From: Porphyra umbilicalis
Lineage: Eukaryota > Rhodophyta > Bangiophyceae > Bangiales > Bangiaceae
NCBI GenBank assembly: GCA_002049455.2
Contig: KV918764.1
Coordinates: forward strand, 186,001-250,000
Length of the DNA stretch: 64,000 nucleotides
Reading direction: 5' to 3'
A program made the position numbers and the translations under genes. This document shows positions 429 through 41,252 of the stretch, one piece after another (the stretch's first letter is position 1; the number at the start of each line of letters is the position of its first letter). The notes beneath the pieces are model-generated. The model was not told the DNA's origin, searched no databases, and worked only from the letters and a program-made list of their open reading frames with translations.

Positions 429-1310
429 CTGCACCCCGTTCACCTCCCAGACCGGCGCTCTTTCCAAACGTGCCACACAAAGTCGTTTCGCTATGGGTCA
501 GCACCAAACCTGGAACATCACCGCTCCAGCGCCACTCCCCAGCCAACTTTATGGCAAACAAACCAACGTTCACCACTAAACTCACGCCACACACCCGCCC
601 AGATATGCACCGCCAACCTTTGAAGCCCCATCCTCTTGGCCCGATTCTGTAGCGGCGGACTGTACCGTTTGGCACACACCCCTACCATCCACTGCCAGAG
701 GTACGCCCGCGAAACCACCGTTCGACGCTATGACACCCGCGGTCCGCCCAACCTCCACAAAGCCACAAATCCACACGTCCGCCATACTGTGCCCTGCTTC
801 CCCACCTCTGCAATATTCTTGTGAAGTTTTGCACCCTTCCGGCATCTTGCGCCAGAGTTATGGTCGTCGCCGCACCCCAAACCTCAATCTTAGAATTCCC
901 CACCCTAACCACCCTAACGTTCCCCAACCTACTGTCAGTGTCAACTCGAACATTCCCCAATTGGAAACGCTCTTTCGCCATCCCACCTCACCTCGCCCCA
1001 ACAGCTTCTCTGCTCAGACACGCAGAGCATATCCTAGGCCATTTGTACCCGCCTTGTCCGGTTCTGAGCTGAAACGTGCGTTTCACATCATCCTGGTACA
1101 CCTTTCCCGTTTTGAAATATATCGCACGGGCTCGTGTAGCTTTGATTTTCCATCGCTCTTTCCACGCTCGCCCACACGTCAAACCGAAACCCAGCCGGAC
1201 TCATCCGCATTTACCTTCATTGCGCGCCAGGCATGCGAGGCTTCAACTGAATCCGACATGGCGCTCCCAAGATACACCTCCGAATTCCAATATTGCGTTT
1301 CAAGTCACTT

Positions 1311-1930
1311 GAACGCCCCACACCGCCCAACCTTTGCTGACTTGGGCCACCTGCGCCATATTTCCAGCATGCATGCCAGACGTCGACCAAAACTGCATAG
1401 TTTGAAGGACGTTGACCGTCTGGGTCCAGAGATACTGTTTCGAATCCAAATATTGGGTTTCAATTCACTTGAACGCCCCACACCGCCCAACCTTTGCTGA
1501 CTTGGGCCACCTGCGCCATATTGCCAGCATGTCCGCTCGATGTCGACCAGAACTGCATAGTTTGAAGGACGTTGACCGTCTGGGTCCAGAGATACTGTTT
1601 CGAATCCAAATATTGGGTTTCAATTCACTTGAACGCCCCACACCGCCCAACCTTTGCTGATTTGGGCCACCTGCGCCATATTGCCAGCATGCCCGCTCGA
1701 CTTCGACCGGAACTGCATAGTTTGAAGGACGTTGACCGTCTGGGTCCAGAGATACTGTTTCGAATCGAAATATTGGGTTTCAATTCACTTGAACGCCCCA
1801 CACCGCCCAGCCTTTGCTGACTTGGGCCACCTGCGCCATATTGCCAGCATGTCCGCTCGATGTCGACCAGAACTGCATAGTTTGAAGGACGTTGACCTTC
1901 TGGGTCCAGAGATACTTCTCCGAATCAGAA
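1311..1930 (+). repeat. 160-bp sub-repeats, unit 1 (about 4 copies)
   Basis: Copies start at 1311, 1471, 1631 and 1791, exactly 160 bp apart, each opening with GAACGCCCCACACCGCCCA. The last copy runs into the unique leader at AGAGATACTTCTCCGAATC. Confidence 0.95.
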
Positions 1931-2464
1931 TCATGCAGGAAACACCTTTCTGTCATGCTCTTGGCGATCCGTCGCGACCCGACCCTGGCCGACCCAGGCA
2001 CCCCCCGGGGTGCCCCAGCAGCTCGTCAGGGTCGCGAAGAGCAGGCAAAACGAGCCGCGCCCCTCCAGGAGCGCGCACACCGCTTTTGCGGATGCATGCA
2101 GTTTGACCACCCCTTGCAAATGACCCATCTGGGGCGCCTTGGGGACGTGGGCGCTGCACCACCTCACCAAGTCAGAATCGCCGCGGAACTACGCTTCCGT
2201 AACACTTCTGCTGCTCTGCGTCGTACGTGCCCTGGCTGAGTCCTCCCATCACCGTGACGGCAAAGCTCGTATCGCCCCGTGCGTCTCCACAACCATCCTC
2301 CGTGCCACTTCCCCCCGGCGCCCCTTTCCCACCCATCCACGCTCCCTCTTCTTGTGCTGGTGTTTGCTATCCACCCTCGGTGGCAGCCAGCACTGGACTC
2401 GCCACTAGTAGGCAAACCATCCAACGCCACCCCTCCCCGCCCTCCCGCCTGCCCGGCCGAGTTC

Positions 2465-3601
2465 ATGGCGCACGGAAAGCGGTCCACGAAGGACCGACAG
2501 CGGGCACCGCGCCCACCACCCTCTTCCGGTTCTGACTCTTCAAGCGAAAGCGACGTGATTCCCCTCGATGCCCCCGATGCTGCGGGTGCCGCAGGGGAAG
2601 GCACCGCTAGCCGCGGCAGCTGCGGCGGTCGCGGTGCCCCTGCCGCCGACCACAGCGACGACTCTACTGCCCAGAAGGACGACGATAACCACGACGAAGA
2701 CGATGTAGCCGCCGCTGCCAGCGAAAGCGACGACCACGACGACGAAGATTACGTGGACGCTTCCTTTTCGTTTTTCGACCCCCGCCCCGACGACGTGCCG
2801 CGCCTGCGGTCGCTCCTCCTCGACGTGGCGCGCTCCCTCTCCGTCCCCGACGCGGCAGTGCACGCTCACGCGCTCGCAGAGGCGGTCGCAGCGCAAACGC
2901 GCGTCGGCACGACAGTGCGCGTCGATGACGGGGAGGGCTCAGGAGCCGCGGTCGTCGGTGAGGCGCTCGGGTTTATCACTGTCCTCCCTGTGGCGACGCA
3001 CGCGGCGGTGCTCGCGCCTCTGCTCGCCGCAATTGACAGCGCGACAGCGGCGAAAGACGGTGCCAGTGGTGGCGGCGGCGTCTGGGCGGCTGCCGCGGCG
3101 GGAGCAAAAATCGGCGTTGTCCTCTCCGAGCGGGTCGTCAATCTGCCCCCTGCCCTCGTGCCGTGGCTCCACACCGCTCTGTGGGACGAACTGTCTTGGG
3201 CACTGGAAGACGAGCCAACTGCCGCCCTCCGTGCCGCCTATGCACTGACACACTTCGTCATTATCACGGACGTGTACGCGCAGACGGGGGGGGCGCCCAC
3301 CTCCAAGCGCCGCAAAGCAAAAAAGCGGCGCACGGGCGGCGGCGACGCCGCCGCCGCCATCCCGCTCCCCGCCGCGTCGGAGGGCGCACGAGACTTCGGC
3401 TTCACGCGCGTGGAGGATGGGGCCTGGTTCCGAGCAGCCGCCGCGGTCGCCTTGTGGCCAATTCCAGGTGAGAGCGCGGCGCGGGGGGGGCTCACGCGCC
3501 AAAGGCTGGCGATGCTCGTGCCCGCAGCGGCCGTGCCGGCGGCGCGAGCCGAGATCAAGGCAGCATGCGGAGGGGAGGCTGCAGGGCCGGCCAATCGCTG
3601 A
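2465..3601 (+). CDS. BCP1: Bcp1/BCCIP family protein, array copy 1
   Basis: A 378-residue protein matching the Bcp1 (yeast)/BCCIP (animal) family by pattern. Residues 1-60 are low complexity and 62-96 are strongly acidic. The conserved core runs from about 97 to 365 and includes LGFITVLPV (168-176), the family-typical GVVLSERVVNLPP (217-229), THFVIIT (262-268), a basic KRRKAKKRR stretch (281-289) that could be a nuclear signal, and LAMLVPAAAV near the end. Yeast Bcp1 is a nuclear protein needed for export of Mss4 and acts as a chaperone for ribosomal protein Rpl23; BCCIP binds BRCA2 and p21 and also supports 60S assembly. The frame is open for 62 codons before this ATG, but that leader lacks an ATG at its head and is frameshifted in copy 6, so 2465 is chosen. 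AATAAA lies 68 bases after the stop (3669). No intron. Confidence 0.85.
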   Translation: MAHGKRSTKDRQRAPRPPPSSGSDSSSESDVIPLDAPDAAGAAGEGTASRGSCGGRGAPAADHSDDSTAQKDDDNHDEDDVAAAASESDDHDDEDYVDASFSFFDPRPDDVPRLRSLLLDVARSLSVPDAAVHAHALAEAVAAQTRVGTTVRVDDGEGSGAAVVGEALGFITVLPVATHAAVLAPLLAAIDSATAAKDGASGGGGVWAAAAAGAKIGVVLSERVVNLPPALVPWLHTALWDELSWALEDEPTAALRAAYALTHFVIITDVYAQTGGAPTSKRRKAKKRRTGGGDAAAAIPLPAASEGARDFGFTRVEDGAWFRAAAAVALWPIPGESAARGGLTRQRLAMLVPAAAVPAARAEIKAACGGEAAGPANR

Positions 3602-4468
3602 GCTGACCCCGTCACCCGCACCGCGGAGGCCAAAGCGCCCGCTCTGGTTGCGTCCGACCGTCGTCTTTAATAAACCTGCAAAGTTTCCGCTCTATCGCCC
3701 CTCTCCGGCCACCTTTATGGCAAATAAACCAACGTTCACCACTAAACTCACGCCACACACCCGCCCAGATATGCACCGCCAACCTTTGAAGCCCTATCCT
3801 CTTGGCCCGTCTCTGTAGCGGCGGACTGTACCGTTTGGCACACACCCTTACCATCCACTGCCAGAGGTACGCCCGCGAAACCACCGTTCGACGCTATGAC
3901 ACCCGCGGTCCGCCCAACCTCCACAAATCCACACGTCCGCCATACTGTGCCCTGCTACCCCACCTCTGCAATATTCTTGTGAAGTTTTGCACCCTTCCGA
4001 CATCTTGCGCCAGAGTTATGGTCGTCGCCGCACCCCAAACCTCAATCTTAGAATTCCCCACCCTAACCACCCTAACGTTCCCCAACCTACTTTCAGTGTC
4101 AACTCGAACATTCCCCAATTGGAAACGCTCTTTCGCCATCCCACCTCACCTCGCCCCAACAGCTTCTCTGCTCAGACACGCAGAGCATATCCTAGGCCAT
4201 TTGTACCCGCCTTGTCCGGTTCTGAGCTGAAACGTGCGTTTCACATCATCCTGGTACACCTTTCCCGTTTTGAAATATATCGCACGGGCTCGTGTAGCTT
4301 TGATTTTCCATCGCTCTTTCCACGCTCGCCCACACGTCAAACCGAAACCCAGCCGGACTCATCCGCATTTACCTTCATTGCGCGCCAGGCATGCGAGGCT
4401 TCAACTGAATCCGACATGGCGCTCCCAAGATACACCTCCGAATTCCAATATTGCGTTTCAAGTCACTT

Positions 4469-4928
4469 GAACGTCCCACACCGCCAAACCTTTGCTGACT
4501 TGGGCCACCTGCGCCATAATTCCAGCATGCCCGCTCAATTTCGACCGGAACTGCATAGTTTGAAGGATGTTGACCGTCTGGGTCCAGAGATACTGTTTCG
4601 AATCCAAATATTGGGTTTCAATTCACTTGAACGCCCCACACCGCCCAACCTTTGCTGCCTTGGGCCACCTGCGCCATATTGCCAGCATGCCCGCTCGATT
4701 TCGACCGGAACTGCATAGTTTGAAGGACGTTGACCGTCTGGGTCCAGAGATACTGTTTCGAATCCAAATATTGGGTTTCAATTCACTTGAACGCCCCACA
4801 CCGCCCAACCTTTGCTGACTTGGGCCACCTGCGCCACATTGCCAGCATGTCCGCTCGATGTCGACCAGAACTGCATAGTTTGAAGGACGTTGACCTTCTG
4901 GGTCCAGAGATACTTCTCCGAATCAGAA
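4469..4928 (+). repeat. 160-bp sub-repeats, unit 2 (3 copies)
   Basis: Copies start at 4469, 4629 and 4789. The first has GAACGTCCCA instead of GAACGCCCCA and is the most changed. Confidence 0.95.
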
Positions 4929-5462
4929 TCATGCAGGAAACACCTTTCTGTCATGCTCTTGGCGATCCGTCGCGACCCGACCCTGGCCGACCCAGGCACC
5001 CCCCGGGGTGCCCCAGCAGCTCGTCAGGGTCGCGAAGAGCAGGCAAAACGAGCCGCGCCCCTCCAGGAGCGCGCACACCGCTTTTGCGGATGCATGCAGT
5101 TTGACCACCCCTTGCAAATGACCCATCTGGGGCGCCTTGGGGACGTGGGCGCTGCACCACCTCACCAAGTCAGAATCGCCGCGGAACTACGCTTCCGTAA
5201 CACTTCTGCTGCTCTGCGTCGTACGTGCCCTGGCTGAGTCCTCCCATCACCGTGACGGCAAAGCTCGTATCGCCCCGTGCGTCTCCACAACCATCCTCCG
5301 TGCCACTTCCCCCCGGCGCCCCTTTCCCACCCATCCACGCTCCCTCTTCTTGTGCTGGTGTTTGCTATCCACCCTCGGTGGCAGCCAGCACTGGACTCGC
5401 CACTAGTAGGCAAACCATCCAACGCCACCCCTCCCCGCCCTCCCGCCTGCCCGGCCGAGTTC

Positions 5463-6599
5463 ATGGCGCACGGAAAGCGGTCCACGAAGGACCGACAGCG
5501 GGCACCGCGCCCACCACCCTCTTCCGGTTCTGACTCTTCAAGCGAAAGCGACGTGATTCCCCTCGATGCCCCCGATGCTGCGGGTGCCGCAGGGGAAGGC
5601 ACCGCTAGCCGCGGCAGCTGCGGCGGTCGCGGTGCCCCTGCCGCCGACCACAGCGACGACTCTACTGCCCAGAAGGACGACGATAACCACGACGAAGACG
5701 ATGTAGCCGCCGCTGCCAGCGAAAGCGACGACCACGACGACGAAGATTACGTGGACGCTTCCTTTTCGTTTTTCGACCCCCGCCCCGACGACGTGCCGCG
5801 CCTGCGGTCGCTCCTCCTCGACGTGGCGCGCTCCCTCTCCGTCCCCGACGCGGCAGTGCACGCTCACGCGCTCGCAGAGGCGGTCGCAGCGCAAACGCGC
5901 GTCGGCACGACAGTGCGCGTCGATGACGGGGAGGGCTCAGGAGCCGCGGTCGTCGGTGAGGCGCTCGGGTTTATCACTGTCCTCCCTGTGGCGACGCACG
6001 CGGCGGTGCTCGCGCCTCTGCTCGCCGCAATTGACAGCGCGACAGCGGCGAAAGACGGTGCCAGTGGTGGCGGCGGCGTCTGGGCGGCTGCCGCGGCGGG
6101 AGCAAAAATCGGCGTTGTCCTCTCCGAGCGGGTCGTCAATCTGCCCCCTGCCCTCGTGCCGTGGCTCCACACCGCTCTGTGGGACGAACTGTCTTGGGCA
6201 CTGGAAGACGAGCCAACTGCCGCCCTCCGTGCCGCCTATGCACTGACACACTTCGTCATTATCACGGACGTGTACGCGCAGACGGGGGGGGCGCCCACCT
6301 CCAAGCGCCGCAAAGCAAAAAAGCGGCGCACGGGCGGCGGCGACGCCGCCGCCGCCATCCCGCTCCCCGCCGCGTCGGAGGGCGCACGAGACTTCGGCTT
6401 CACGCGCGTGGAGGATGGGGCCTGGTTCCGAGCAGCCGCCGCGGTCGCCTTGTGGCCAATTCCAGGTGAGAGCGCGGCGCGGGGGGGGCTCACGCGCCAA
6501 ATGCTGGCGATGCTCGTGCCCGCAGCGGCCGTGCCGGCGGCGCGAGCCGAGATCAAGGCAGCATGCGGAGGGGAGGCTGCAGGGCCGGCCAATCGCTGA
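5463..6599 (+). CDS. BCP1: Bcp1/BCCIP family protein, array copy 2
   Basis: Full-length copy of 378 residues. It differs from copy 1 by Arg347Met (LTRQMLAM), in the C-terminal part of the core where related proteins also vary. Start, acidic stretch, SERVVNLPP motif and basic stretch are unchanged. AATAAA at 6667. Confidence 0.85.
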   Translation: MAHGKRSTKDRQRAPRPPPSSGSDSSSESDVIPLDAPDAAGAAGEGTASRGSCGGRGAPAADHSDDSTAQKDDDNHDEDDVAAAASESDDHDDEDYVDASFSFFDPRPDDVPRLRSLLLDVARSLSVPDAAVHAHALAEAVAAQTRVGTTVRVDDGEGSGAAVVGEALGFITVLPVATHAAVLAPLLAAIDSATAAKDGASGGGGVWAAAAAGAKIGVVLSERVVNLPPALVPWLHTALWDELSWALEDEPTAALRAAYALTHFVIITDVYAQTGGAPTSKRRKAKKRRTGGGDAAAAIPLPAASEGARDFGFTRVEDGAWFRAAAAVALWPIPGESAARGGLTRQMLAMLVPAAAVPAARAEIKAACGGEAAGPANR

Positions 6600-7466
6600 G
6601 CTGACCCCGTCACCCGCACCGCGGAGGCCAAAGCGCCCGCTCTGGTTGCGTCCGACCGTCGTCTTTAATAAACCTGCAAAGTTTCCGCTCTATCGCCCCT
6701 CTCCGGCCACCTTTATGGCAAATAAACCAACGTTCACCACTAAACTCACGCCACACACCCGCCCAGATATGCACCGCCAACCTTTGAAGCCCTATCCTCT
6801 TGGCCCGTCTCTGTAGCGGCGGACTGTACCGTTTGGCACACACCCTTACCATCCACTGCCAGAGGTACGCCCGCGAAACCACCGTTCGACGCTATGACAC
6901 CCGCGGTCCGCCCAACCTCCACAAATCCACACGTCCGCCATACTGTGCCCTGCTTCCCCACCTCTGCAATATTCTTGTGAAGTTTTGCACCCTTCCGGCA
7001 TCTTGCGCCAAAGTTATGGTCGTCGCCGCACCCCAAACCTCAATCTTAGAATTCCCCACCCTAACCACCCTAACGTTCCCCAACCTACTTTCAGTGTCAA
7101 CTCGAACATTCCCCAATTGGAAACGCTTTTTCGCCATCCCACCTCACCTCGCCCCAACAGCTTCTCTGCTCAGACAGGCAGAGCATATCCTAGGCCATTT
7201 GTACCCGCCTTGTCCGGTTCTGAGCTGAAACGTGCGTTTCACATCATCCTGGTACACCTTTCCCGTTTTGAAATATATCGCACAGGCTCGTGTAGCTTTG
7301 ATTTTCCATCGCTCTTTCCACGCCCGCCCACACGTCAAACCGAAACCCAGCCGGACTCATCCGCATTTACCTTCATTGCGCGCCAGGCATGCGAGGCTTC
7401 AACTGAATCCGACATGGCGCTCCCAAGATACACCTCCGAATTCCAATATTGCGTTTCAAGTCACTT

Positions 7467-7926
7467 GAACGCCCCACACCGCCCAACCTTTGCTGACTTG
7501 GGCCACCTGCGCCATATTTCCAGCATGCATGCCAGACGTCGACCGGAACTGCATAGTTTGAAGGACGTTGACCGTCTGGGTCCAGAGATACTGTTTCGAA
7601 TCCAAATATTGGGTTTCAATTCACTTGAACGCCCCACACCGCCCAAGCTTTGTCGACTTGGGCCACCTGCGCCATATTGCCAGCATGCCCGCTCGATTTC
7701 GACCGGAACTGCATAGTTTGAAGGAAGTTGACCGTCTGGGTCCAGAGATACTGTTTCGAATCGAAATATTGGGTTTCAACTCACTTGAACGCCCCACACC
7801 GCCCAACCTTTGCTGACTTGGGCCACCTGCGCCATATTGCCAGCATGTCCGCTCGATGTCGACCAGAACTGCATAGTTTGAAGGACGTTGACCTTCTGGG
7901 TCCAGAGATACTTCTCCGAATCAGAA
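7467..7926 (+). repeat. 160-bp sub-repeats, unit 3 (3 copies)
   Basis: Copies start at 7467, 7627 and 7787. Unit 6 shares the marker GTCGACTTGGGCC in its second copy, which links units 3 and 6 by recent exchange. Confidence 0.95.
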
Positions 7927-8460
7927 TCATGCAGGAAACACCTTTCTGTCATGCTCTTGGCGATCCGTCGCGACCCGACCCTGGCCGACCCAGGCACCCC
8001 CCGGGGTGCCCCAGCAGCTCGTCAGGGTCGCGAAGAGCAGGCAAAACGAGCCGCGCCCCTCCAGGAGCGCGCACACCGCGCTTGCGGATGCATGCAGTTT
8101 GACCACCCCTTGCAAATGACCCATCTGGGGCGCCTTGGGGACGTGGGCGCTGCACCACCTCACCAAGTCAGAATCGCCGCGGAACTACGCTTCCGTAACA
8201 CTTCTGCTGCTCTGCGTCGTACGTGCCCTGGCTGAGTCCTCCCATCACCGTGACGGCAAAGCTCGTATCGCCCCGTGCGTCTCCACAACCATCCTCCGTG
8301 CCACTTCCCCCCGGCGCCCCCTTCCCACCCATCCACGCTCCCTCTTCTTGTGCTGGTGTTTGCTATCCACCCTCGGTGGCAGCCAGCACTGGACTCGCCA
8401 CTAGTAGGCAAACCATCCAACGCCACCCCTCCCCGCCCTCCCGCCTGCCCGGCCGAGTTC

Positions 8461-9597
8461 ATGGCGCACGGAAAGCGGTCCACGAAGGACCGACAGCGGG
8501 CACCGCGCCCACCACCCTCTTCCGGTTCTGACTCTTCAAGCGAAAGCGACGTGATTCCCCTCGATGCCCCCGATGCTGCGGGTGCCGCAGGGGAAGGCAC
8601 CGCTAGCCGCGGCAGCTGCGGCGGTCGCGGTGCCCCTGCCGCCGACCACAGCGACGACTCTACTGCCCAGAAGGACGACGATAACCACGACGAAGACGAT
8701 GTAGCCGCCGCTGCCAGCGAAAGCGACGACCACGACGACGAAGATTACGTGGACGCTTCCTTTTCGTTTTTCGACCCCCGCCCCGACGACGTGCCGCGCC
8801 TGCGGTCGCTCCTCCTCGACGTGGCGCGCTCCCTCTCCGTCCCCGACGCGGCAGTGCACGCTCACGCGCTCGCAGAGGCGGTCGCAGCGCAAACGCGCGT
8901 CGGCACGACAGTGCGCGTCGATGACGGGGAGGGCTCAGGAGCCGCGGTCGTCGGTGAGGCGCTCGGGTTTATCACTGTCCTCCCTGTGGCGACGCACGCG
9001 GCGGTGCTCGCGCCTCTGCTCGCCGCAATTGACAGCGCGACAGCGGCGAAAGACGGTGCCAGTGGTGGCGGCGGCGTCTGGGCGGCTGCCGCGGCGGGAG
9101 CAAAAATCGGCGTTGTCCTCTCCGAGCGGGTCGTCAATCTGCCCCCTGCCCTCGTGCCGTGGCTCCACACCGCTCTGTGGGACGAACTGTCTTGGGCACT
9201 GGAAGACGAGCCAACTGCCGCCCTCCGTGCCGCCTATGCACTGACACACTTCGTCATTATCACGGACGCGTACGCGCAGACGGGGGGGGCGCCCACCTCC
9301 AAGCGCCGCAAAGCAAAAAAGCGGCGCACGGGCGGCGGCGACGCCGCCGCCGCCATCCCGCTCCCCGCCGCGTCGGAGGGCGCACGAGACTTCGGCTTCA
9401 CGCGCGTGGAGGATGGGGCCTGGTTCCGAGCAGCCGCCGCGGTCGCCTTGTGGCCAATTCCAGGTGAGAGCGCGGCGCGGGGGGGGCTCACGCGCCAAAG
9501 GCTGGCGATGCTCGTGCCCGCAGCGGCCGTGCCGGCGGCGCGAGCCGAGATCAAGGCAGCATGCGGAGGGGAGGCTGCAGGGCCGGCCAATCGCTGA
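8461..9597 (+). CDS. BCP1: Bcp1/BCCIP family protein, array copy 3
   Basis: Full-length copy of 378 residues. It differs from copy 1 by Val270Ala (TDAYAQ), a conservative change just before the variable basic loop. AATAAA at 9665. Confidence 0.85.
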   Translation: MAHGKRSTKDRQRAPRPPPSSGSDSSSESDVIPLDAPDAAGAAGEGTASRGSCGGRGAPAADHSDDSTAQKDDDNHDEDDVAAAASESDDHDDEDYVDASFSFFDPRPDDVPRLRSLLLDVARSLSVPDAAVHAHALAEAVAAQTRVGTTVRVDDGEGSGAAVVGEALGFITVLPVATHAAVLAPLLAAIDSATAAKDGASGGGGVWAAAAAGAKIGVVLSERVVNLPPALVPWLHTALWDELSWALEDEPTAALRAAYALTHFVIITDAYAQTGGAPTSKRRKAKKRRTGGGDAAAAIPLPAASEGARDFGFTRVEDGAWFRAAAAVALWPIPGESAARGGLTRQRLAMLVPAAAVPAARAEIKAACGGEAAGPANR

Positions 9598-11458: not shown

Positions 11459-12595
11459 ATGGCGCACGGAAAGCGGTCCACGAAGGACCGACAGCGGGCA
11501 CCGCGCCCACCACCCTCTTCCGGTTCTGACTCTTCAAGCGAAAGCGACGTGATTCCCCTCGATGCCCCCGATGCTGCGGGTGCCGCAGGGGAAGGCACCG
11601 CTAGCCGCGGCAGCTGCGGCGGTCGCGGTGCCCCTGCCGCCGACCACAGCGACGACTCTACTGCCCAGAAGGACGACGATAACCACGACGAAGACGATGT
11701 AGCCGCCGCTGCCAGCGAAAGCGACGACCACGACGACGAAGATTACGTGGACGCTTCCTTTTCGGTTTTCGACCCCCGCCCCGACGACGTGCCGCGCCTG
11801 CGGTCGCTCCTCCTCGACGTGGCGCGCTCCCTCTCCGTCCCCGACGCGGCAGTGCACGCTCACGCGCTCGCAGAGGCGGTCGCAGAGCAAACGCGCGTCG
11901 GCACGACAGTGCGCGTCGATGACGGGGAGGGCTCAGGAGCCGCGGTCGTCGGTGAGGCGCTCGGGTTTATCACTGTCCTCCCTGTGGCGACGCACGCGGC
12001 GGTGCTCGCGCCTCTGCTCGCCGCAATTGACAGCGCGACAGCGGCGAAAGACGGTGCCAGTGGTGGCGGCGGCGTCTGGGCGGCTGCCGCGGCGGGAGCA
12101 AAAATCGGCGTTGTCCTCTCCGAGCGGGTCGTCAATCTGCCCCCTGCCCTCGTGCCGTGGCTCCACACCGCTCTGTGGGACGAACTGTCTTGGGCACTGG
12201 AAGACGAGCCAACTGCCGCCCTCCGTGCCGCCTATGCACTGACACACTTCGTCATTATCACGGACGTGTACGCGCAGACGGGGGGGGCGCCCACCTCCAA
12301 GCGCCGCAAAGCAAAAAAGCGGCGCACGGGCGGCGGCGACGCCGCCGCCGCCATCCCGCTCCCCGCCGCGTCGGAGGGCGCACGAGACTTCGGCTTCACG
12401 CGCGTGGAGGATGGGGCCTGGTTCCGAGCAGCCGCCGCGGTCGCCTTGTGGCCAATTCCAGGTGAGAGCGCGGCGCGGGGGGGGCTCACGCGCCAAAGGC
12501 TGGCGATGCTCGTGCCCGCAGCGGCCGTGCCGGCGGCGCGAGCCGAGATCAAGGCAGCATGCGGAGGGGAGGCTGCAGGGCCGGCCAATCGCTGA
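11459..12595 (+). CDS. BCP1: Bcp1/BCCIP family protein, array copy 4
   Basis: Full-length copy of 378 residues with two changes from copy 1: Phe103Val (FSVFDPRP, at the start of the conserved core) and Ala143Glu. These are the only changes seen at these two sites in the array. AATAAA at 12663. Confidence 0.85.
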   Translation: MAHGKRSTKDRQRAPRPPPSSGSDSSSESDVIPLDAPDAAGAAGEGTASRGSCGGRGAPAADHSDDSTAQKDDDNHDEDDVAAAASESDDHDDEDYVDASFSVFDPRPDDVPRLRSLLLDVARSLSVPDAAVHAHALAEAVAEQTRVGTTVRVDDGEGSGAAVVGEALGFITVLPVATHAAVLAPLLAAIDSATAAKDGASGGGGVWAAAAAGAKIGVVLSERVVNLPPALVPWLHTALWDELSWALEDEPTAALRAAYALTHFVIITDVYAQTGGAPTSKRRKAKKRRTGGGDAAAAIPLPAASEGARDFGFTRVEDGAWFRAAAAVALWPIPGESAARGGLTRQRLAMLVPAAAVPAARAEIKAACGGEAAGPANR

Positions 12596-14775: not shown

Positions 14776-15912
14776 ATGGCGCACGGAAAGCGGTCCACGA
14801 AGGACCGACAGCGGGCACCGCGCCCACCACCCTCTTCCGGTTCTGACTCTTCAAGCGAAAGCGACGTGATTCCCCTCGATGCCCCCGATGCTGCGGGTGC
14901 CGCAGGGGAAGGCACCGCTAGCCGCGGCAGCTGCGGCGGTCGCGGTGCCCCTGCCGCCGACCACAGCGACGACTCTACTGCCCAGAAGGACGACGATAAC
15001 CACGACGAAGACGATGTAGCCGCCGCTGCCAGCGAAAGCGACGACCACGACGACGAAGATTACGTGGACGCTTCCTTTTCGTTTTTCGACCCCCGCCCCG
15101 ACGACGTGCCGCGCCTGCGGTCGCTCCTCCTCGACGTGGCGCGCTCCCTCTCCGTCCCCGACGCGGCAGTGCACGCTCACGCGCTCGCAGAGGCGGTCGC
15201 AGCGCAAACGCGCGTCGGCACGACAGTGCGCGTCGATGACGGGGAGGGCTCAGGAGCCGCGGTCGTCGGTGAGGCGCTCGGGTTTATCACTGTCCTCCCT
15301 GTGGCGACGCACGCGGCGGTGCTCGCGCCTCTGCTCGCCGCAATTGACAGCGCGACAGCGGCGAAAGACGGTGCCAGTGGTGGCGGCGGCGTCTGGGCGG
15401 CTGCCGCGGCGGGAGCAAAAATCGGCGTTGTCCTCTCCGAGCGGGTCGTCAATCTGCCCCCTGCCCTCGTGCCGTGGCTCCACACCGCTCTGTGGGACGA
15501 ACTGTCTTGGGCACTGGAAGACGAGCCAACTGCCGCCCTCCGTGCCGCCTATGCACTGACACACTTCGTCATTATCACGGACGTGTACGCGCAGACGGGG
15601 GGGGCGCCCACCTCCAAGCGCCGCAAAGCAAAAAAGCGGCGCACGGGCGGCGGCGACGCCGCCGCCGCCATCCCGCTCCCCGCCGCGTCGGAGGGCGCAC
15701 GAGACTTCGGCTTCACGCGCGTGGAGGATGGGGCCTGGTTCCGAGCAGCCGCCGCGGTCGCCTTGTGGCCAATTCCAGGTGAGAGCGCGGCGCGGGGGGG
15801 GCTCACGCGCCAAAGGCTGGCGATGCTCGTGCCCGCAGCGGCCGTGCCGGCGGCGCGAGCCGAGATCAAGGCAGCATGCGGAGGGGAGGCTGCAGGGCCG
15901 GCCAATCGCTGA
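14776..15912 (+). CDS. BCP1: Bcp1/BCCIP family protein, array copy 5
   Basis: Full-length copy whose predicted protein is identical to copy 1. Its upstream block has five 160-bp sub-repeats instead of three. A one-base deletion in a T run (about 14,397) lies in the leader, well before the start codon. AATAAA at 15980. Confidence 0.85.
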   Translation: MAHGKRSTKDRQRAPRPPPSSGSDSSSESDVIPLDAPDAAGAAGEGTASRGSCGGRGAPAADHSDDSTAQKDDDNHDEDDVAAAASESDDHDDEDYVDASFSFFDPRPDDVPRLRSLLLDVARSLSVPDAAVHAHALAEAVAAQTRVGTTVRVDDGEGSGAAVVGEALGFITVLPVATHAAVLAPLLAAIDSATAAKDGASGGGGVWAAAAAGAKIGVVLSERVVNLPPALVPWLHTALWDELSWALEDEPTAALRAAYALTHFVIITDVYAQTGGAPTSKRRKAKKRRTGGGDAAAAIPLPAASEGARDFGFTRVEDGAWFRAAAAVALWPIPGESAARGGLTRQRLAMLVPAAAVPAARAEIKAACGGEAAGPANR

Positions 15913-17770: not shown

Positions 17771-18907
17771 ATGGCGCACGGAAAGCGGTCCACGAAGGAC
17801 CGACAGCGGGCACCGCGCCCACCACCCTCTTCCGGTTCTGACTCTTCAAGCGAAAGCGACGTGATTCCCCTCGATGCCCCCGATGCTGCGGGTGCCGCAG
17901 GGGAAGGCACCGCTAGCCGCGGCAGCTGCGGCGGTCGCGGTGCCCCTGCCGCCGACCACAGCGACGACTCTACTGCCCAGAAGGACGACGATAACCACGA
18001 CGAAGACGATGTAGCCGCCGCTGCCAGCGAAAGCGACGACCACGACGACGAAGATTACGTGGACGCTTCCTTTTCGTTTTTCGACCCCCGCCCCGACGAC
18101 GTGCCGCGCCTGCGGTCGCTCCTCCTCGACGTGGCGCGCTCCCTCTCCGTCCCCGACGCGGCAGTGCACGCTCACGCGCTCGCAGAGGCGGTCGCAGCGC
18201 AAACGCGCGTCGGCACGACAGTGCGCGTCGATGACGGGGAGGGCTCAGGAGCCGCGGTCGTCGGTGAGGCGCTCGGGTTTATCACTGTCCTCCCTGTGGC
18301 GACGCACGCGGCGGTGCTCGCGCCTCTGCTCGCCGCAATTGACAGCGCGACAGCGGCGAAAGACGGTGCCAGTGGTGGCGGCGGCGTCTGGGCGGCTGCC
18401 GCGGCGGGAGCAAAAATCGGCGTTGTCCTCTCCGAGCGGGTCGTCAATCTGCCCCCTGCCCTCGTGCCGTGGCTCCACACCGCTCTGTGGGACGAACTGT
18501 CTTGGGCACTGGAAGACGAGCCAACTGCCGCCCTCCGTGCCGCCTATGCACTGACACACTTCGTCATTATCACGGACGTGTACGCGCAGACGGGGGGGGC
18601 GCCCACCTCCAAGCGCCGCAAAGCAAAAAAGCGGCGCACGGGCGGCGGCGACGCCGCCGCCGCCATCCCGCTCCCCGCCGCGTCGGAGGGCGCACGAGAC
18701 TTCGGCTTCACGCGCGTGGAGGATGGGGCCTGGTTCCGAGCAGCCGCCGCGGTCGCCTTGTGGCCAATTCCAGGTGAGAGCGCGGCGCGGGGGGGGCTCA
18801 CGCGCCAAAGGCTGGCGATGCTCGTGCCCGCAGCGGCCGTGCCGGCGGCGCGAGCCGAGATCAAGGCAGCATGCGGAGGGGAGGCTGCAGGGCCGGCCAA
18901 TCGCTGA
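17771..18907 (+). CDS. BCP1: Bcp1/BCCIP family protein, array copy 6
   Basis: Full-length copy identical in protein to copy 1. A one-base deletion in the leader (about 17,627) breaks the upstream open frame that the other copies have, while the 378-codon frame from 17771 stays intact. This is the best evidence in the array that translation starts at this ATG and not in the leader. AATAAA at 18975. Confidence 0.85.
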   Translation: MAHGKRSTKDRQRAPRPPPSSGSDSSSESDVIPLDAPDAAGAAGEGTASRGSCGGRGAPAADHSDDSTAQKDDDNHDEDDVAAAASESDDHDDEDYVDASFSFFDPRPDDVPRLRSLLLDVARSLSVPDAAVHAHALAEAVAAQTRVGTTVRVDDGEGSGAAVVGEALGFITVLPVATHAAVLAPLLAAIDSATAAKDGASGGGGVWAAAAAGAKIGVVLSERVVNLPPALVPWLHTALWDELSWALEDEPTAALRAAYALTHFVIITDVYAQTGGAPTSKRRKAKKRRTGGGDAAAAIPLPAASEGARDFGFTRVEDGAWFRAAAAVALWPIPGESAARGGLTRQRLAMLVPAAAVPAARAEIKAACGGEAAGPANR

Positions 18908-19772
18908 GCTGACCCCGTCACCCGCACCGCGGAGGCCAAAGCGCCCGCTCTGGTTGCGTCCGACCGTCGTCTTTAATAAACCTGCAAAGTTTCCGCTCTA
19001 TCGCCCCTCTCCGGCCACCTTTATGGCAAATAAACCAACGTTCACCACTAAACTCACGCCACACACCCGCCCAGATATGCACCGCCAACCTTTGAAGCCC
19101 TATCCTCTTGGCCCGTCTCTGTAGCGGCGGACTGTACCGTTTGGCACACACCCTTACCATCCACTGCCAGAGGTACGCCCGCGAAACCACCGTTCGACGC
19201 TATGACACCCGCGGTCCGCCCAACCTCCACAAATCCACACGTCCGCCATACTGTGCCCTGCTTCCCCACCTCTGCAATATTCTTGTGAAGTTTTGCACCC
19301 TTCCGGCATCTTGCGCCAGAGTTATGGTCGTCGCCGCACCCCAAACCTCAATCTTAGAATTCCCCACCCTAACCACCCTAACGTTCCCCAACCTACTTTC
19401 AGTGTCAACTCGAACATTCCCCAATTGGAAACGCTCTTTCGCCATCCCACCTCACCTCGCCCCAACAGCTTCTCTGCTCAGACACGCAGAGCATATCCTA
19501 GGCCATTTGTACCCGCCTGTCCGGTTCTGAGCTGAAACGTGCGTTTCACATCATCCTGGTACACCTTTCCCGTTTTGAAATATATCGCACGGGCTCGTGT
19601 AGCTTTGATTTTCCATCGCTCTTTCCACGCCCGCCCACACGTCAAACCGAAACCCAGCCGGACTCATCCGCATTTACCTTCATTGCGCGCCAGGCATGCG
19701 AGGCTTCAACTGAATCCGACATGGCGCTCCCAAGATACACCTCCGAATCCAATATTGCGTTTCAAGTCACTT

Positions 19773-20232
19773 GAACGCCCCACACCGCCCAACCTTTGCT
19801 GACTTGGGCCACCTGCGCCATATTTCCAGCATGCATGCCAGACGTCGACCGGAACTGCATAGTTTGAAGGACGTTGACCGTCTGGGTCCAGAGATACTGT
19901 TTCGAATCCAAATATTGGGTTTCAATTCACTTGAACGCCCCACACCGCCCAAGCTTTGCTGACTTGGGCCACCTGCGCCATATTGCCAGCATGCCCGCTC
20001 GATTTCGACCGGAACTGCATAGTTTGAAGGACGTTGACCGTCTGGGTCCAGAGATACTGTTTCGAATCGAAATATTGGGTTTCAACTCACTTGAACGCCC
20101 CACACCGCCCAACCTTTGCTGACTTGGGCCACCTGCGCCATATTGCCAGCATGTCCGCTCGATGTCGACCAGAACTGCATAGTTTGAAGGACGTTGACCT
20201 TCTGGGTCCAGAGATACTTCTCCGAATCAGAA
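19773..20232 (+). repeat. 160-bp sub-repeats, unit 7 (3 copies)
   Basis: Copies start at 19773, 19933 and 20093, nearly the same as unit 4. Confidence 0.95.
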
Positions 20233-20766
20233 TCATGCAGGAAACACCTTTCTGTCATGCTCTTGGCGATCCGTCGCGACCCGACCCTGGCCGACCCAGG
20301 CACCCCCCGGGGTGCCCCAGCAGCTCGTCAGGGTCGCGAAGAGCAGGCAAAACGAGCCGCGCCCCTCCAGGAGCGCGCACACCGCTTTTGCGGATGCATG
20401 CAGTTTGACCACCCCTTGCAAATGACCCATCTGGGGCGCCTTGGGGACGTGGGCGCTGCACCACCTCACCAAGTCAGAATCGCCGCGGAACTACGCTTCC
20501 GTAACACTTCTGCTGCTCTGCGTCGTACGTGCCCTGGCTGAGTCCTCCCATCACCGTGACGGCAAAGCTCGTATCGCCCCGTGCGTCTCCACAACCATCC
20601 TCCGTGCCACTTCCCCCCGGCGCCCCTTTCCCACCCATCCACGCTCCCTCTTCTTGTGCTGGTGTTTGCTATCCACCCTCGGTGGCAGCCAGCACTGGAC
20701 TCGCCACTAGTAGGCAAACCATCCAACGCCACCCCTCCCCGCCCTCCCGCCTGCCCGGCCGAGTTC

Positions 20767-21900
20767 ATGGCGCACGGAAAGCGGTCCACGAAGGACCGAC
20801 AGCGGGCACCGCGCCCACCACCCTCTTCCGGTTCTGACTCTTCAAGCGAAAGCGACGTGATTCCCCTCGATGCCCCCGATGCTGCGGGTGCCGCAGGGGA
20901 AGGCACCGCTAGCCGCGGCAGCTGCGGCGGTCGCGGTGCCCCTGCCGCCGACCACAGCGACGACTCTACTGCCCAGAAGGACGACGATAACCACGACGAA
21001 GACGATGTAGCCGCCGCTGCCAGCGAAAGCGACGACCACGACGACGAAGATTACGTGGACGCTTCCTTTTCGTTTTTCGACCCCCGCCCCGACGACGTGC
21101 CGCGCCTGCGGTCGCTCCTCCTCGACGTGGCGCGCTCCCTCTCCGTCCCCGACGCGGCAGTGCACGCTCACGCGCTCGCAGAGGCGGTCGCAGCGCAAAC
21201 GCGCGTCGGCACGACAGTGCGCGTCGATGACGGGGAGGGCTCAGGAGCCGCGGTCGTCGGTGAGGCGCTCGGGTTTATCACTGTCCTCCCTGTGGCGACG
21301 CACGCGGCGGTGCTCGCGCCTCTGCTCGCCGCAATTGACAGCGCGACAGCGGCGAAAGACGGTGCCAGTGGTGGCGGCGGCGTCTGGGCGGCTGCCGCGG
21401 CGGGAGCAAAAATCGGCGTTGTCCTCTCCGAGCGGGTCGTCAATCTGCCCCCTGCCCTCGTGCCGTGGCTCCACACCGCTCTGTGGGACGAACTGTCTTG
21501 GGCACTGGAAGACGAGCCAACTGCCGCCCTCCGTGCCGCCTATGCACTGACACACTTCGTCATTATCACGACGTGTACGCGCAGACGGGGGGGGCGCCCA
21601 CCTCCAAGCGCCGCAAAGCAAAAAAGCGGCGCACGGGCGGCGGCGACGCCGCCGCCGCCATCCGCTCCCCGCCGCATCGGAGGGCGCACGAGACTTCGGC
21701 TTCACGCGCGTGGAGGATGGGGCCTGGTTCCGAGCAGCCGCCGCGGTCGCCTTGTGGCCAATTCCAGGTGAGAGCGCGGCGCGGGGGGGCTCACGCGCCA
21801 TAGGCTGGCGATGCTCGTGCCCGCAGCGGCCGTGCCGGCGGCGCGAGCCGAGATCAAGGCAGCATGCGGAGGGGAGGCTGCAGGGCCGGCCAATCGCTGA
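20767..21900 (+). pseudogene. BCP1: Bcp1/BCCIP array copy 7, frameshifted
   Basis: Same start and first 268 codons as copy 1. One G is then missing at about 21,570 (ATCACGACG instead of ATCACGGACG), one C at about 21,662, and one G in the G run at 21,783-21,789. The shifted frame stops at 21769-21771, before the third deletion restores frame, so the predicted product loses the C-terminal third of the core. All three deletions are single bases in or next to homopolymers, and the whole unit is rich in such deletions, so sequencing error is a serious alternative to true loss. AATAAA is kept at 21968. Confidence 0.75.
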
Positions 21901-22767
21901 GCTGACCCCGTCACCCGCACCGCGGAGGCCAAAGCGCCCGCTCTGGTTGCGTCCGACCGTCGTCTTTAATAAACCTGCAAAGTTTCCGCTCTATCGCCCC
22001 TCTCCGGCCACCTTTATGGCAAATAAACCAACGTTCACCACTAAACTCACGCCACACACCCGCCCAGATATGCACCGCCAACCTTTGAAGCCCTATCCTC
22101 TTGGCCCGTCTCTGTAGCGGCGGACTGTACCGTTTGGCACACACCCTTACCATCCACTGCCAGAGGTACGCCCGCGAAACCACCGTTCGACGCTATGACA
22201 CCCGCGGTCCGCCCAACCTCCACAATCCACACGTCCGCCATACTGTGCCCTGCTTCCCCACCTCTGCAATATTCTTGTGAAGTTTTGCACCCTTCCGGCA
22301 TCTTGCGCCAGAGTTATGGTCGTCGCCGCACCCCAAACCTCAATCTTAGAATTCCCCACCCTAACCACCCTAACGTTCCCCAACCTACTTTCAGTGTCAA
22401 CTCGAACATTCCCCAATTGGAAACGCTCTTTCGCCATCCCACCTCACCTCGCCCCAACAGCTTCTCTGCTCAGACACGCAGAGCATATCCTAGGCCATTT
22501 GTACCCGCCTTGTCCGGTTCTGAGCTGAAACGTGCGTTTCACATCATCCTGGTACACCTTTCCCGTTTTGAAATATATCGCACGGGCTCGTGTAGCTTTG
22601 ATTTTCCATCGCTCTTTGCACGCTCGCCCACACGTCAAACCGAAACCCAGCCGGACTCATCCGCATTTACCTTCATTGCGCGCCAGGCATGCGAGGCTTC
22701 AACTGAATCCGACATGGCGCTCCCAAGATACACCTCCGAATCCAAATATTGGGTTTCAATTCACTTG

Positions 22768-23787
22768 AACGCCCCACACCGCCCACCTTCTGCCCCCCCA
22801 CCCGCGCCCAACCTGCATTTGCTGACCTCTGGTCAGAATCTGTTCGATCCATATGGCAATTCACTGAACGCCCCACCCCCCCCGCTGATTGGCCACCTGC
22901 ATTGCCACGCCCCCCCACGATAGGGGACGCGGAAGAACTGGCATATTTAAGCGCCCACCCGCCCCTGGCTGCCCGCCCATATGCCAGCATGCCCGCTCGA
23001 TTTCGACCGGAACTGATAGTTTGAAGGACGTTGACCGTCTGGGTCCAGAGATACTGTTTCGAATCCAAATATTGGGTTTCAATTCACTTGAACGCCCCAC
23101 ACCGCCCAACCGTTGCTGACTTCCACCTGCCCATACTGGCAGCGACCCGCCGATGTCGATCGAACTGTATAGTTTGAAGGACGTTACCGTCTGGGTCCAG
23201 AGATACTGTTTCGAATCCAATTGGTTTCATTCACTGAACCCCCCGCACCGCCCAACCGTTGCTGACTTGGGCCACTTGCACCATACTACCGTCCCAGATT
23301 TCGAATAATATTGGGTTTCAATTCACTTGAACCCCCACACCGCCCAACCGTTGCTGACTTGGGCCACCTGCTCCATACTGGCAGCGTACCCGGCTCATGA
23401 TGGACGTATTCAGAGATACTGTATAGTTTGCAAGGGGACGGTTTACCGTCTGGGTCAGATGATACTTGTTTCCGAATCCAAAATATTGGGTTTCAATTCA
23501 CTTGAACCCCCGCACCGCCCAACCTTTGCTGACTTGGGCCACTTGCACCATACTACCAGCGTACCGCTCGATGCTGATCCGAACTGTATGTTACCGTCTG
23601 GGTCCAAGGACACTGTTTCGAATCCAAAATTTGGGTTTCAATTCACTTGAACCCCCCGCACCGCCCAACCGTTGCTGACTTGGGCCACCTGCGCCATATT
23701 GCCAGCATGCCTGCTCGATTTCGACCGGAACTGCATAGTTTGAAGGACGTTGACCTTCTGGGTCCAGAGATACTTCTCCGAATCAGA
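22768..23787 (+). repeat. Degenerate 160-bp sub-repeat block, unit 8
   Basis: Recognisable starts occur near 22768, 23092, 23235, 23330, 23500 and 23648. Spacing is irregular, with many small indels and C-run expansions, and only the last copy is clean. The block is about 560 bp longer than the usual three-copy block. Confidence 0.85.
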
Positions 23788-24322
23788 ATCATGCAGGAAA
23801 CACCTTTCTGTCATGCTCTTGGCGATCCGTCGCGACCCGACCCTGGCCGACCCAGGCACCCCCCGGGGTGCCCCAGCAGCTCGTCAGGGTCGCGAAGAGC
23901 AGGCAAAACGAGCCGCGCCCCTCCAGGAGCGCGCACACCGCTTTTGCGGATGCATGCAGTTTGACCACCCCTTGCAAATGACCCATCTGGGGCGCCTTGG
24001 GGACGTGGGCGCTGCACCACCTCACCAAGTCAGAATCGCCGCGGAACTACGCTTCCGTAACACTTCTGCTGCTCTGCGTCGTACGTGCCCTGGCTGAGTC
24101 CTCCCATCACCGTGACGGCAAAGCTCGTATCGCCCCGTGCGTCTCCACAACCATCCTCCGTGCCACTTCCCCCCGGCGCCCCTTTCCCACCCATCCACGC
24201 TCCCTCTTCTTGTGCTGGTGTTTGCTATCCACCCTCGGTGGCAGCCAGCACTGGACTCGCCACTAGTAGGCAAACCATCCAACGCCACCCCTCCCCGCCC
24301 TCCCGCCTGCCCGGCCGAGTTC

Positions 24323-25459
24323 ATGGCGCACGGAAAGCGGTCCACGAAGGACCGACAGCGGGCACCGCGCCCACCACCCTCTTCCGGTTCTGACTCTTCA
24401 AGCGAAAGCGACGTGATTCCCCTCGATGCCCCCGATGCTGCGGGTGCCGCAGGGGAAGGCACCGCTAGCCGCGGCAGCTGCGGCGGTCGCGGTGCCCCTG
24501 CCGCCGACCACAGCGACGACTCTACTGCCCAGAAGGACGACGATAACCACGACGAAGACGATGTAGCCGCCGCTGCCAGCGAAAGCGACGACCACGACGA
24601 CGAAGATTACGTGGACGCTTCCTTTTCGTTTTTCGACCCCCGCCCCGACGACGTGCCGCGCCTGCGGTCGCTCCTCCTCGACGTGGCGCGCTCCCTCTCC
24701 GTCCCCGACGCGGCAGTGCACGCTCACGCGCTCGCAGAGGCGGTCGCAGCGCAAACGCGCGTCGGCACGACAGTGCGCGTCGATGACGGGGAGGGCTCAG
24801 GAGCCGCGGTCGTCGGTGAGGCGCTCGGGTTTATCACTGTCCTCCCTGTGGCGACGCACGCGGCGGTGCTCGCGCCTCTGCTCGCCGCAATTGACAGCGC
24901 GACAGCGGCGAAAGACGGTGCCAGTGGTGGCGGCGGCGTCTGGGCGGCTGCCGCGGCGGGAGCAAAAATCGGCGTTGTCCTCTCCGAGCGGGTCGTCAAT
25001 CTGCCCCCTGCCCTCGTGCCGTGGCTCCACACCGCTCTGTGGGACGAACTGTCTTGGGCACTGGAAGACGAGCCAACTGCCGCCCTCCGTGCCGCCTATG
25101 CACTGACACACTTCGTCATTATCACGAACGTGTACGCGCCGACGGGGGCGGCGCCCACCTCCAAGCGCCGCAAAGCAAAAAAGCGGCGCACGGGCGGCGG
25201 CGACGCCGCCGCCGCCATCTCGCTCCCCGCCGCATCGGAGGGCGCACGAGACTTCGGCTTCACGCGCGTGGAGGATGGGGCCTGGTTCCGAGCAGCCGCC
25301 GCGGTCGCCTTGTGGCCAATTCCAGGTGAGAGCGCGGCGCGGGGGGGGCTCACGCGCCATAGGCTGGCGATGCTCGTGCCCGCAGCGGCCGTGCCGGCGG
25401 CGCGAGCCGAGATCAAGGCAGCATGCGGAGGGGAGGCTGCAGGGCCGGCCAATCGCTGA
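24323..25459 (+). CDS. BCP1: Bcp1/BCCIP family protein, array copy 8
   Basis: Full-length and the most divergent intact copy. Changes from copy 1 are Asp269Asn, Gln273Pro, Gly276Ala, Pro300Ser and Gln346His, clustered in the variable loop around the basic stretch. It is the rightmost gene and follows a long, degenerate sub-repeat block (22,768-23,787), as expected for an array edge that escapes homogenisation. AATAAA at 25527. Confidence 0.85.
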   Translation: MAHGKRSTKDRQRAPRPPPSSGSDSSSESDVIPLDAPDAAGAAGEGTASRGSCGGRGAPAADHSDDSTAQKDDDNHDEDDVAAAASESDDHDDEDYVDASFSFFDPRPDDVPRLRSLLLDVARSLSVPDAAVHAHALAEAVAAQTRVGTTVRVDDGEGSGAAVVGEALGFITVLPVATHAAVLAPLLAAIDSATAAKDGASGGGGVWAAAAAGAKIGVVLSERVVNLPPALVPWLHTALWDELSWALEDEPTAALRAAYALTHFVIITNVYAPTGAAPTSKRRKAKKRRTGGGDAAAAISLPAASEGARDFGFTRVEDGAWFRAAAAVALWPIPGESAARGGLTRHRLAMLVPAAAVPAARAEIKAACGGEAAGPANR

Positions 25460-26328
25460 GCTGACCCCGTCACCCGCACCGCGGAGGCCAAAGCGCCCGC
25501 TCTGGTTGCGTCCGACCGTCGTCTTTAATAAACCTGCAAAGTTTCCGCTCTATCGCCCCTCTCCGGCCACCTTTATGGCAAATAAACCAACGTTCACCAC
25601 TAAACTCACGCCACACACCCGCCCAGATATGCACCGCCAACCTTTGAAGCCCTATCCTCTTGGCCCGTCTCTGTAGCGGCGGACTGTACCGTTTGGCACA
25701 CACCCTTACCATCCACTGCCAGAGGTACGCCCGCGAAACCACCGTTCGACGCTATGACACCCGCGGTCCGCCCAACCTCCACAAATCCACACGTCCGCCA
25801 TACTGTGCCCTGCTTCCCCACCTCTGCAAAATTCTTGTGAAGTTTTGCACCCTTCCGGCATCTTGCGCCAGAGTTATGGTCGTCGCCGCACCCCAAACCT
25901 CAATCTTAGAATTCCCCACCCTAACCACCCTAACGTTCCCCAACCTACTTTCAGTGTCAACTCGAACATTCCCCAATTGGAAACGCTCTTTCGCCATCCC
26001 ACCTCACCTCGCCCCAACAGCTTCTCTGCTCAGACACGCAGAGCATATCCTAGGCCATTTGTACCCGCCTTGTCCGGTTCTGAGCTGAAACGTGCGTTTC
26101 ACATCATCCTGGTACACCTTTCCCGTTTTGAAATATATCGCACGGGCTCGTGTAGCTTTGATTTTCCATCGCTCTTTCCACGCTCGCCCACACGTCAAAC
26201 CGAAACCCAGCCGGACTCATCCGCATTTACCTTCATTGCGCGCCAGGCATGCGAGGCTTCAACTGAATCCGACATGGCGCTCCCAAGATACACCTCCGAA
26301 TCCAAATATTGGGCTTCAATTCACTTGA

Positions 26329-26600
26329 ACGCCCCACACCGCCCAACCTTTGCTGACTTGGGCCACCTGCGCCATATTGCCAGCATGTCCGCTCGATTTC
26401 GACCGGAACTGCATAGTTTGAAGGACGTTGACCGTCTGGGTCCAGAGATACTGTTTCGAACCCAAATATTGGGTTTCAATTCACTTGAACCCCCCGCACC
26501 GCCCAACCGTTGCTGACTTGGGCCACCTGCACTATACTGCCAGCATACCCGCTCGATGTCAATCAGAACTGTATAGTTTGAAGGACGTTTTCCATCTGGG
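26329..26600 (+). repeat. Terminal sub-repeats of partial unit 9
   Basis: Two copies start at 26329 and 26488. The second degrades after TTTGAAGGACGTTTTCCATC, and unique DNA follows. No leader or gene follows, so the array ends inside the sub-repeat. Confidence 0.85.
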
Positions 26601-41243: not shown

Positions 41244-41252
41244 CCACTTTTT

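What the first reader, a model, noticed from the sequence alone, without database searches (positions are those of the whole stretch)
490..26600. Tandem macrosatellite amplifies a Bcp1/BCCIP gene eight-fold
Bcp1/BCCIP is normally a single-copy housekeeping gene for 60S ribosome assembly and nuclear export. Here seven intact and one broken copy sit in 3-kb head-to-tail units whose non-coding parts are as similar as the genes. That means homogenisation (unequal crossing over or gene conversion) acts on whole units. An rDNA-like layout for a ribosome-biogenesis chaperone would be a new kind of dosage arrangement.
Basis: partly seen in the sequence, partly recalled or inferred. Interest (0 to 1): 0.9.

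Follow-up and report, generated by a model that had tools for sequence, protein, structure and literature searches.

The report
Tandem arrays of a ribosome-assembly gene
In what is probably a nori-type red alga, a gene that helps build ribosomes was found only in two head-to-tail arrays of near-identical copies spaced by a repeat scattered through the genome, which suggests the repeat, rather than a need for more of the protein, multiplied the gene.

Summary
Window ~491-26602 carries eight head-to-tail BCCIP/Bcp1 genes (seven intact, one with three 1-base deletions), spaced 2995-3556 bp. A whole-genome search adds seven copies on contig C337, opposite strand, about 93% identical, with no shared flanks found, and no others in the 83.8-Mb assembly. 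Uniformity within arrays with divergence between them is concerted evolution. The spacer is a dispersed repeat (160-bp and 352-bp monomers, 25 contigs) that also lies in tandem units with other ORFs: a tRNA-synthetase fragment and a phosphodiesterase (C255), and unidentified ORFs (C39). The left array edge coincides with the element, so the simplest history is a gene trapped between element copies and amplified by unequal exchange. Between arrays the protein is under purifying selection (dN/dS 0.27-0.41); inside the array variants look unfiltered (9 nonsynonymous: 1 synonymous). The client family uL14 is not arrayed. The "broken" copy may be a consensus error. Gene-bearing macrosatellites are a known kind; new are a housekeeping factor found only in this form, and a spacer family shared with other gene arrays.

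The parts
491..2188 (+). Left-edge copy of the dispersed element (A block, four 160-bp monomers, truncated 352-bp monomer), without a gene before it
   Evidence: 75.8% identity to C26 starts at window 491; unit homology from 506; monomers at 1311, 1471, 1631, 1791
2465..3601 (+). BCCIP copy W1, 378 aa, intact
   Evidence: AATAAA at 3669
5463..6599 (+). BCCIP copy W2, intact (private change at residue 347)
8461..9597 (+). BCCIP copy W3, intact (private change at residue 270)
11459..12595 (+). BCCIP copy W4, intact (private changes at residues 103 and 143)
14776..15912 (+). BCCIP copy W5, intact
17771..18907 (+). BCCIP copy W6, intact
20767..21900 (+). BCCIP copy W7, frame broken by three 1-bp deletions; shares two alleles with W8; possibly a consensus error
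24323..25459 (+). BCCIP copy W8, intact, the most diverged copy in gene and upstream repeat, at the 3' edge
3671..5186 (+). Typical spacer: element A block, 160-bp monomers and a truncated 352-bp monomer (about 1.5 kb), a dispersed repeat; a version of it lies between all neighbouring genes
22793..23299 (+). Older, degenerate 160-bp-repeat stretch between W7 and W8
25530..26602 (+). Right-edge element copy after W8, truncated within the 160-bp monomers (two monomers)

Best explanation
This is a gene-bearing macrosatellite. Shown: the BCCIP/Bcp1 gene (a 1.48-kb gene segment with its own 5' flank and polyadenylation signal) alternates with about 1.5 kb of a dispersed repeat element in two arrays (8 copies on C4, 7 on C337, 3' gene-element junction of the same type), homogenised within each array and diverged between them, and the genome search found no BCCIP gene outside the arrays. 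Inferred: the gene became flanked by two copies of the element; unequal exchange between those copies made the tandem array; the array or a unit moved to a second locus; ongoing unequal crossing over or gene conversion keeps each array uniform. Selection keeps a working protein at the level of the array while single copies drift. Extra dosage is a possible by-product and is not shown.
For: 15 of 15 PF13862 matches in the genome lie in these two arrays. Copies 1-7 differ by 0.15% in CDS; between arrays CDS differs by 2.6% and the repeat by about 10%. The 3'-edge copy W8 is the most diverged in its upstream repeat (3.0-3.6% against 0-1.1% among W1-W7) and in gene segment 440-1921 (0.27-0.54% against 0-0.27%), though not in downstream segment 1922-2670. 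Monomer number varies: 3-5 per internal spacer in the window, 1 in each of five internal C337 spacers. The unit's spacer matches DNA on 25 contigs, 23 besides C4 and C337. The left array edge coincides with the element, and the window has nine element stretches for eight genes. The 3' gene-element junction is of the same type in W1, W8, K1 and K2, right after AATAAA; AATAAA follows 8 of 8 window genes. Fixed differences between arrays are 12 nonsynonymous: 14 synonymous against a neutral expectation of 73% nonsynonymous (p=0.003), dN/dS 0.27-0.41 in six pairs. Tandem units with other ORFs carry the same family: C255, C39 with a 2763-bp unit.
Against: No single-copy ancestral locus or outgroup synteny could be read, so trapping between two elements is inferred. 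The element does not always go with arrays: of 12 element loci read, four hold a higher-order tandem unit with other sequence, one (C479) partial duplications, and seven none in the DNA fetched. The right array edge is inside the element, not at its end. The class of the element is unknown. No reads, RNA or population data. The 9:1 versus 12:14 contrast is small (p=0.024; p=0.10 without W8) and could partly be consensus error.
Confidence: 0.66

Rival explanations
1. Dosage: selection for high BCCIP output in ribosome assembly drove and maintains the arrays, as with rDNA or histone arrays.
For: Seven of eight window copies and six of seven C337 copies are intact frames, AATAAA follows 8 of 8 window copies; no BCCIP gene found elsewhere; another array carries a class-II tRNA-synthetase fragment, also a translation gene.
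Against: The family of uL14, the client of Bcp1, is not in an array (four matches at three places); heterozygous Bccip loss does not impair 60S biogenesis in mouse cells (abstract, PMC7736804); the same repeat lies in tandem units with a phosphodiesterase and unidentified ORFs; no purging visible inside the array.
Confidence: 0.2
2. Passenger amplification: the repeat spreads and expands for its own reasons, the genes ride along, and most copies are silent or redundant.
For: Dispersed repeat with many copies; within-array variants 9 nonsynonymous to 1 synonymous; degenerate copies of the C255 phosphodiesterase on C21 and C345.
Against: Purifying selection between arrays and no BCCIP found elsewhere mean that some copies probably work. 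This overlaps the best explanation and differs only in how many copies are active.
Confidence: 0.3
3. Assembly artefact: collapsed or repeated consensus of one or few units.
For: C337 has a 2283-N gap inside its array; W7 carries three 1-bp deletions, two next to W8 variant sites and one at a G run.
Against: Several copies carry private variants and spacers differ in monomer number; two loci; a K-like protein comes from a 2779-bp contig of another data set, near one unit length.
Confidence: 0.05
4. C337 is the other haplotype of the C4 locus, so there is one locus, not two.
For: Similar unit and copy number.
Against: The C4 left flank (505 bases) matched only itself and C26 (2 of 2 candidates scored). 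C337 flank stretches at about 58.2-59.5 kb and 63.2-66.5 kb matched only C337 among the candidates scored (40 of 1705, 40 of 450, so a diverged copy could be missed). No collinear flank between C337 and C4:156001-270000.
Confidence: 0.08

Closest known systems
Human gene-bearing macrosatellites D4Z4 (DUX4, 3.3 kb) and RS447 (USP17, 4.7 kb)
   Same: Multi-kb head-to-tail units, each with a protein-coding gene; D4Z4 at two loci, 4q and 10q (passages of PMC3599962)
   Different: Those encode lineage-specific genes with repressed or restricted expression (recalled); here the only source found of a conserved housekeeping factor, with spacers from a dispersed repeat shared with other gene arrays
rDNA and histone gene arrays (recalled)
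   Same: Tandem, homogenised, intact coding copies
   Different: Different gene kind; no ribosomal RNA family in the window; need for high dosage not shown
BCCIP/Bcp1 family (solved structures 7c4h BCP1; 8exe, 7kyq, 7kys BCCIP)
   Same: Pfam PF13862 match, BCP1 7c4h at E=8.8e-05, shared LSER..N.PP stretch
   Different: 15 array copies here; one member sequence in the database for Pyropia yezoensis

Membership tests
BCCIP/Bcp1 protein family | Profile match to PF13862 above the curated cut-off | tested here: met
   95-101.5 bits for 8 of 8 window copies against a cut-off of 27; hmmscan of 3 of 8 copies, 94-100 bits
BCCIP/Bcp1 protein family | Sequence match to solved Bcp1/BCCIP structures | tested here: met
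   7c4h BCP1 E=8.8e-05; BCCIP entries only E=0.78-1.2
BCCIP/Bcp1 protein family | Fold by structure prediction | tested here: inconclusive
   pLDDT 34 with a 4-sequence alignment; no fold search run
BCCIP/Bcp1 protein family | Binds and protects uL14, acts in 60S assembly | not testable with these tools
   Reported for yeast and mammalian relatives (abstracts)
Gene-bearing macrosatellite | Head-to-tail multi-kb units with a gene in each | tested here: met
Gene-bearing macrosatellite | Concerted evolution of whole units | tested here: met
Gene-bearing macrosatellite | Copy number polymorphism | not testable with these tools
   one assembly only; the two loci differ in copy number and unit length
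rDNA-like dosage array | Amplification needed for product amount | not testable with these tools
   indirect result against: client family uL14 not in an array
rDNA itself | rRNA genes in the unit | tested here: not met
   Rfam at gathering scores: one tRNA hit only in the window, outside the array; genome-wide SSU/LSU searches did not complete

The most novel reading that the evidence does not exclude
A single dispersed repeat family acts as a gene-amplification device in this genome: where it brackets a gene it converts that gene, housekeeping or not (BCCIP twice, a tRNA synthetase plus a phosphodiesterase, an unknown gene), into a self-homogenising macrosatellite that can relocate, leaving arrays as the only source of the gene.
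Probability: 0.25. Interest if true: 0.78.

Novelty: new variant of a known kind. Interest (0 to 1): 0.56.

Why it matters
Gene-bearing macrosatellites are mostly known from mammals and carry non-essential or germline genes (recalled). Here the only source found of a ribosome-assembly factor is in that form, at two loci, so concerted evolution of a housekeeping protein gene can be followed with a built-in replicate. The repeat shared with other gene arrays gives a testable route from single gene to array.

Tried and rejected
Rejected: spacer as rDNA intergenic spacer (no rRNA in the window, nor in nine 10-kb pieces of six element loci; genome-wide rRNA searches did not complete). Disfavoured: C337 as haplotig (two of these score 40 candidates only). 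Not usable: structure prediction (too shallow an alignment). A second, profile-based protein search reached no further relatives (the same two hits of 7997 candidates scored). Element class not settled: seven ORFs in or near element copies (four: three of C479, one of C4:163.9 kb; three of C39) had no Pfam match; element coding was not searched systematically. Paper searches for BCCIP arrays: 'BCCIP, tandem, copy number, alga' held by 0 papers; 'BCCIP, tandem, gene duplication, genome' held by 1, titled on Rad51 filaments (listing only); 'tandem gene array, alga, satellite DNA, unequal crossing' held by 0. The library is open-licence PMC only. Passages of PMC8752119 and PMC10388701 were looked at and gave nothing on such arrays.

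Full report
The observation. Tandem Repeats Finder sees only shorter monomers in the array because of its 500-base limit, but self-comparison shows unit-length matches of 96-99% across window ~506-26602. Eight BCCIP coding sequences lie head to tail on the + strand, at spacings of 2998, 2998, 2998, 3317, 2995, 2996 and 3556 bases (from coordinates). Eight of eight match Pfam PF13862, and phmmer finds the solved BCP1 structure 7c4h at E=8.8e-05, with BCCIP entries only at E=0.78-1.2. Seven of eight are intact 378-aa frames. The copy at 20767 has three single-base deletions at CDS columns 804, 897 and 1019. Two abut sites where W8 differs (805, 898), one lies at a run of G, and W7 shares two W8 alleles (912, 1038). 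Either it is a recombinant with real damage or the consensus mixes two copies; I would not call it a pseudogene without reads.

A second array. The whole-genome search (83.8 Mb, 665 contigs; six frames, 15 of 15 candidates scored) lists 15 matches: eight in the window and seven on C337 on the opposite strand, none elsewhere. C337 spacing is about 2673 bases, and one copy there is cut by a 2283-N gap. Six of seven C337 copies are intact. The arrays are about 93% identical over the unit. C337 does not look like a haplotype copy of C4: the C4 left flank matches only itself and C26 at 82% (2 of 2 candidates scored), flank stretches of C337 matched only themselves among the candidates scored (40 of 1705; 40 of 450), and no collinear flank exists between C337 and C4:156001-270000. 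Other C337 flank stretches tested match many contigs and look like transposons.

Concerted evolution. Copies W1-W7 differ by 0.15% in CDS and 0.56-0.61% in the repeat spacer outside the 160-bp zone; between arrays CDS differs by 2.6%, the 5' gene flank by 5.3%, the upstream repeat by 9.9% and the downstream repeat by 10-11% for K2-K6 (the 16.6% is inflated by K1, whose downstream sequence is largely unrelated). The 3'-edge copy W8 stands apart in the upstream repeat (3.0-3.6%), a pattern expected of unequal exchange, but not in the downstream repeat. Monomers per internal spacer vary from 3 to 5 in the window, with 4 and 2 at the edges, and there is one in each of five internal C337 spacers.

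Selection. Thirteen intact copies were compared (seven window, six C337; the broken and the truncated copy were left out). Between arrays 26 codons are fixed different, 12 nonsynonymous and 14 synonymous; neutral expectation is 73% nonsynonymous (p=0.003). dN/dS in six pairs is 0.27-0.41. Within the window array 10 sites vary, 9 nonsynonymous and 1 synonymous; against the fixed differences p=0.024, with C337 variants added (10:2) p=0.040, and with W8 left out (4:0) p=0.10. So the protein is kept, while single copies look unfiltered; consensus errors would give a similar within-array pattern.

The spacer is a dispersed repeat. Unit positions 1922-2998 and 1-439 (unit = window 1750-4747) match DNA on 25 contigs, 23 besides C4 and C337, at 71-97%; this is a lower bound, 38 of 54 candidates scored. 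The family has 160-bp and 352-bp monomers. On C4:157.9 kb and C174 it is part of a repeat of 4.5 kb that is 97% identical between the two. The array begins with the element, with similarity beginning at window 491, and ends inside 160-bp monomers at 26602. The gene's AATAAA lies at the gene-element junction after 8 of 8 window genes, and the junction is of the same type in W1, W8, K1 and K2.

Other gene arrays with the same family. C255 holds full-length 538-aa phosphodiesterase ORFs at 41.0, 61.3 and 99.7 kb and a broken-up copy at 108.5 kb (PF01663, 183 bits). A class-II tRNA-synthetase core fragment (PF00587, 49 bits; that it is seryl-tRNA synthetase is my reading of the sequence) precedes it and the element follows; the stretch from 40255 to 44689 recurs at 60566-65000 at 100%. 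C255 has two N blocks of exactly 10,000 bases in the part read, so copy number there is uncertain. C39 has a 2763-bp unit at 98.6-99.4% with 352-bp monomers; three of its ORFs were tested and had no Pfam match. Of twelve element loci read, four hold a higher-order tandem unit (window, C337, C255, C39), C479 has duplications of 584 and 465 bases, and seven show none in the DNA fetched (C26, C72, C174, C4:157k, C62, C287, C336). These loci were taken from the listed hits, several because their hits were spaced in tandem, so this is not an enrichment test.

Is it dosage? Bcp1 protects uL14 (abstract, PMC11248248) and BCCIP acts in 60S biogenesis in mammals, where heterozygous loss was insufficient to impair it (abstract, PMC7736804). 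The uL14 family search gives four matches at three places: C665, probably plastid; C156; and C290 in two pieces (compartment labels are my inference). The client family is therefore not in an array. Dosage remains possible but unshown.

Kind and novelty. Human macrosatellites with a gene in every unit are known (passages of PMC3599962). This case belongs to that kind by layout and homogenisation. It differs in that no copy of a housekeeping factor was found outside the arrays, and in the spacer family shared with other gene arrays. The database holds one member sequence for Pyropia yezoensis on a 43.6-Mb contig (a 43.6-Mbp scaffold S3 is named in passages of PMC7423979), so the array may be recent, but annotation there could have missed copies. 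A 97%-identical protein from a 2779-bp contig in JGI data is closest to the C337 copies (3 to 4 differences against 11-16 to the window copies); its length near one unit hints at a collapsed tandem unit but proves nothing.

Noticed in passing
C255:25001-65000 (L027-L030) and 99-112 kb: Large tandem units with phosphodiesterase and tRNA-synthetase ORFs and the same 160/352-bp repeats; two N blocks of exactly 10,000 bases.
   Followed up: partly
C39:80054-87150 (L037): 2763-bp tandem unit, 98.6-99.4% identical, with 352-bp monomers; three ORFs tested without Pfam match.
   Followed up: partly
window 39176-40332 and 62843-64000: 98.7% direct repeat about 23.7 kb apart, with ORFs bearing chromo and RT RNase H domains on the minus strand between them.
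   Followed up: no
window 33057-33384: Near-perfect palindrome (97% self-complementary, about 330 bp).
   Followed up: no
window 26885-27572 and 27572-28425: Two highly dispersed repeats right of the array.
   Followed up: partly
window 28749-30761: Glucose/sorbosone dehydrogenase-like ORF on the minus strand (Pfam 20.9 bits, under its cut-off of 25); a second open frame lies directly downstream (intron or frameshift).
   Followed up: partly
window 1-428: Sequence with an 82% copy at C26:135260-135677, about 12 kb from an element copy on that contig.
   Followed up: no
window 41185-41243: tRNA Rfam hit of 32 bits not confirmed by ARAGORN; perhaps a tRNA-derived repeat.
   Followed up: no
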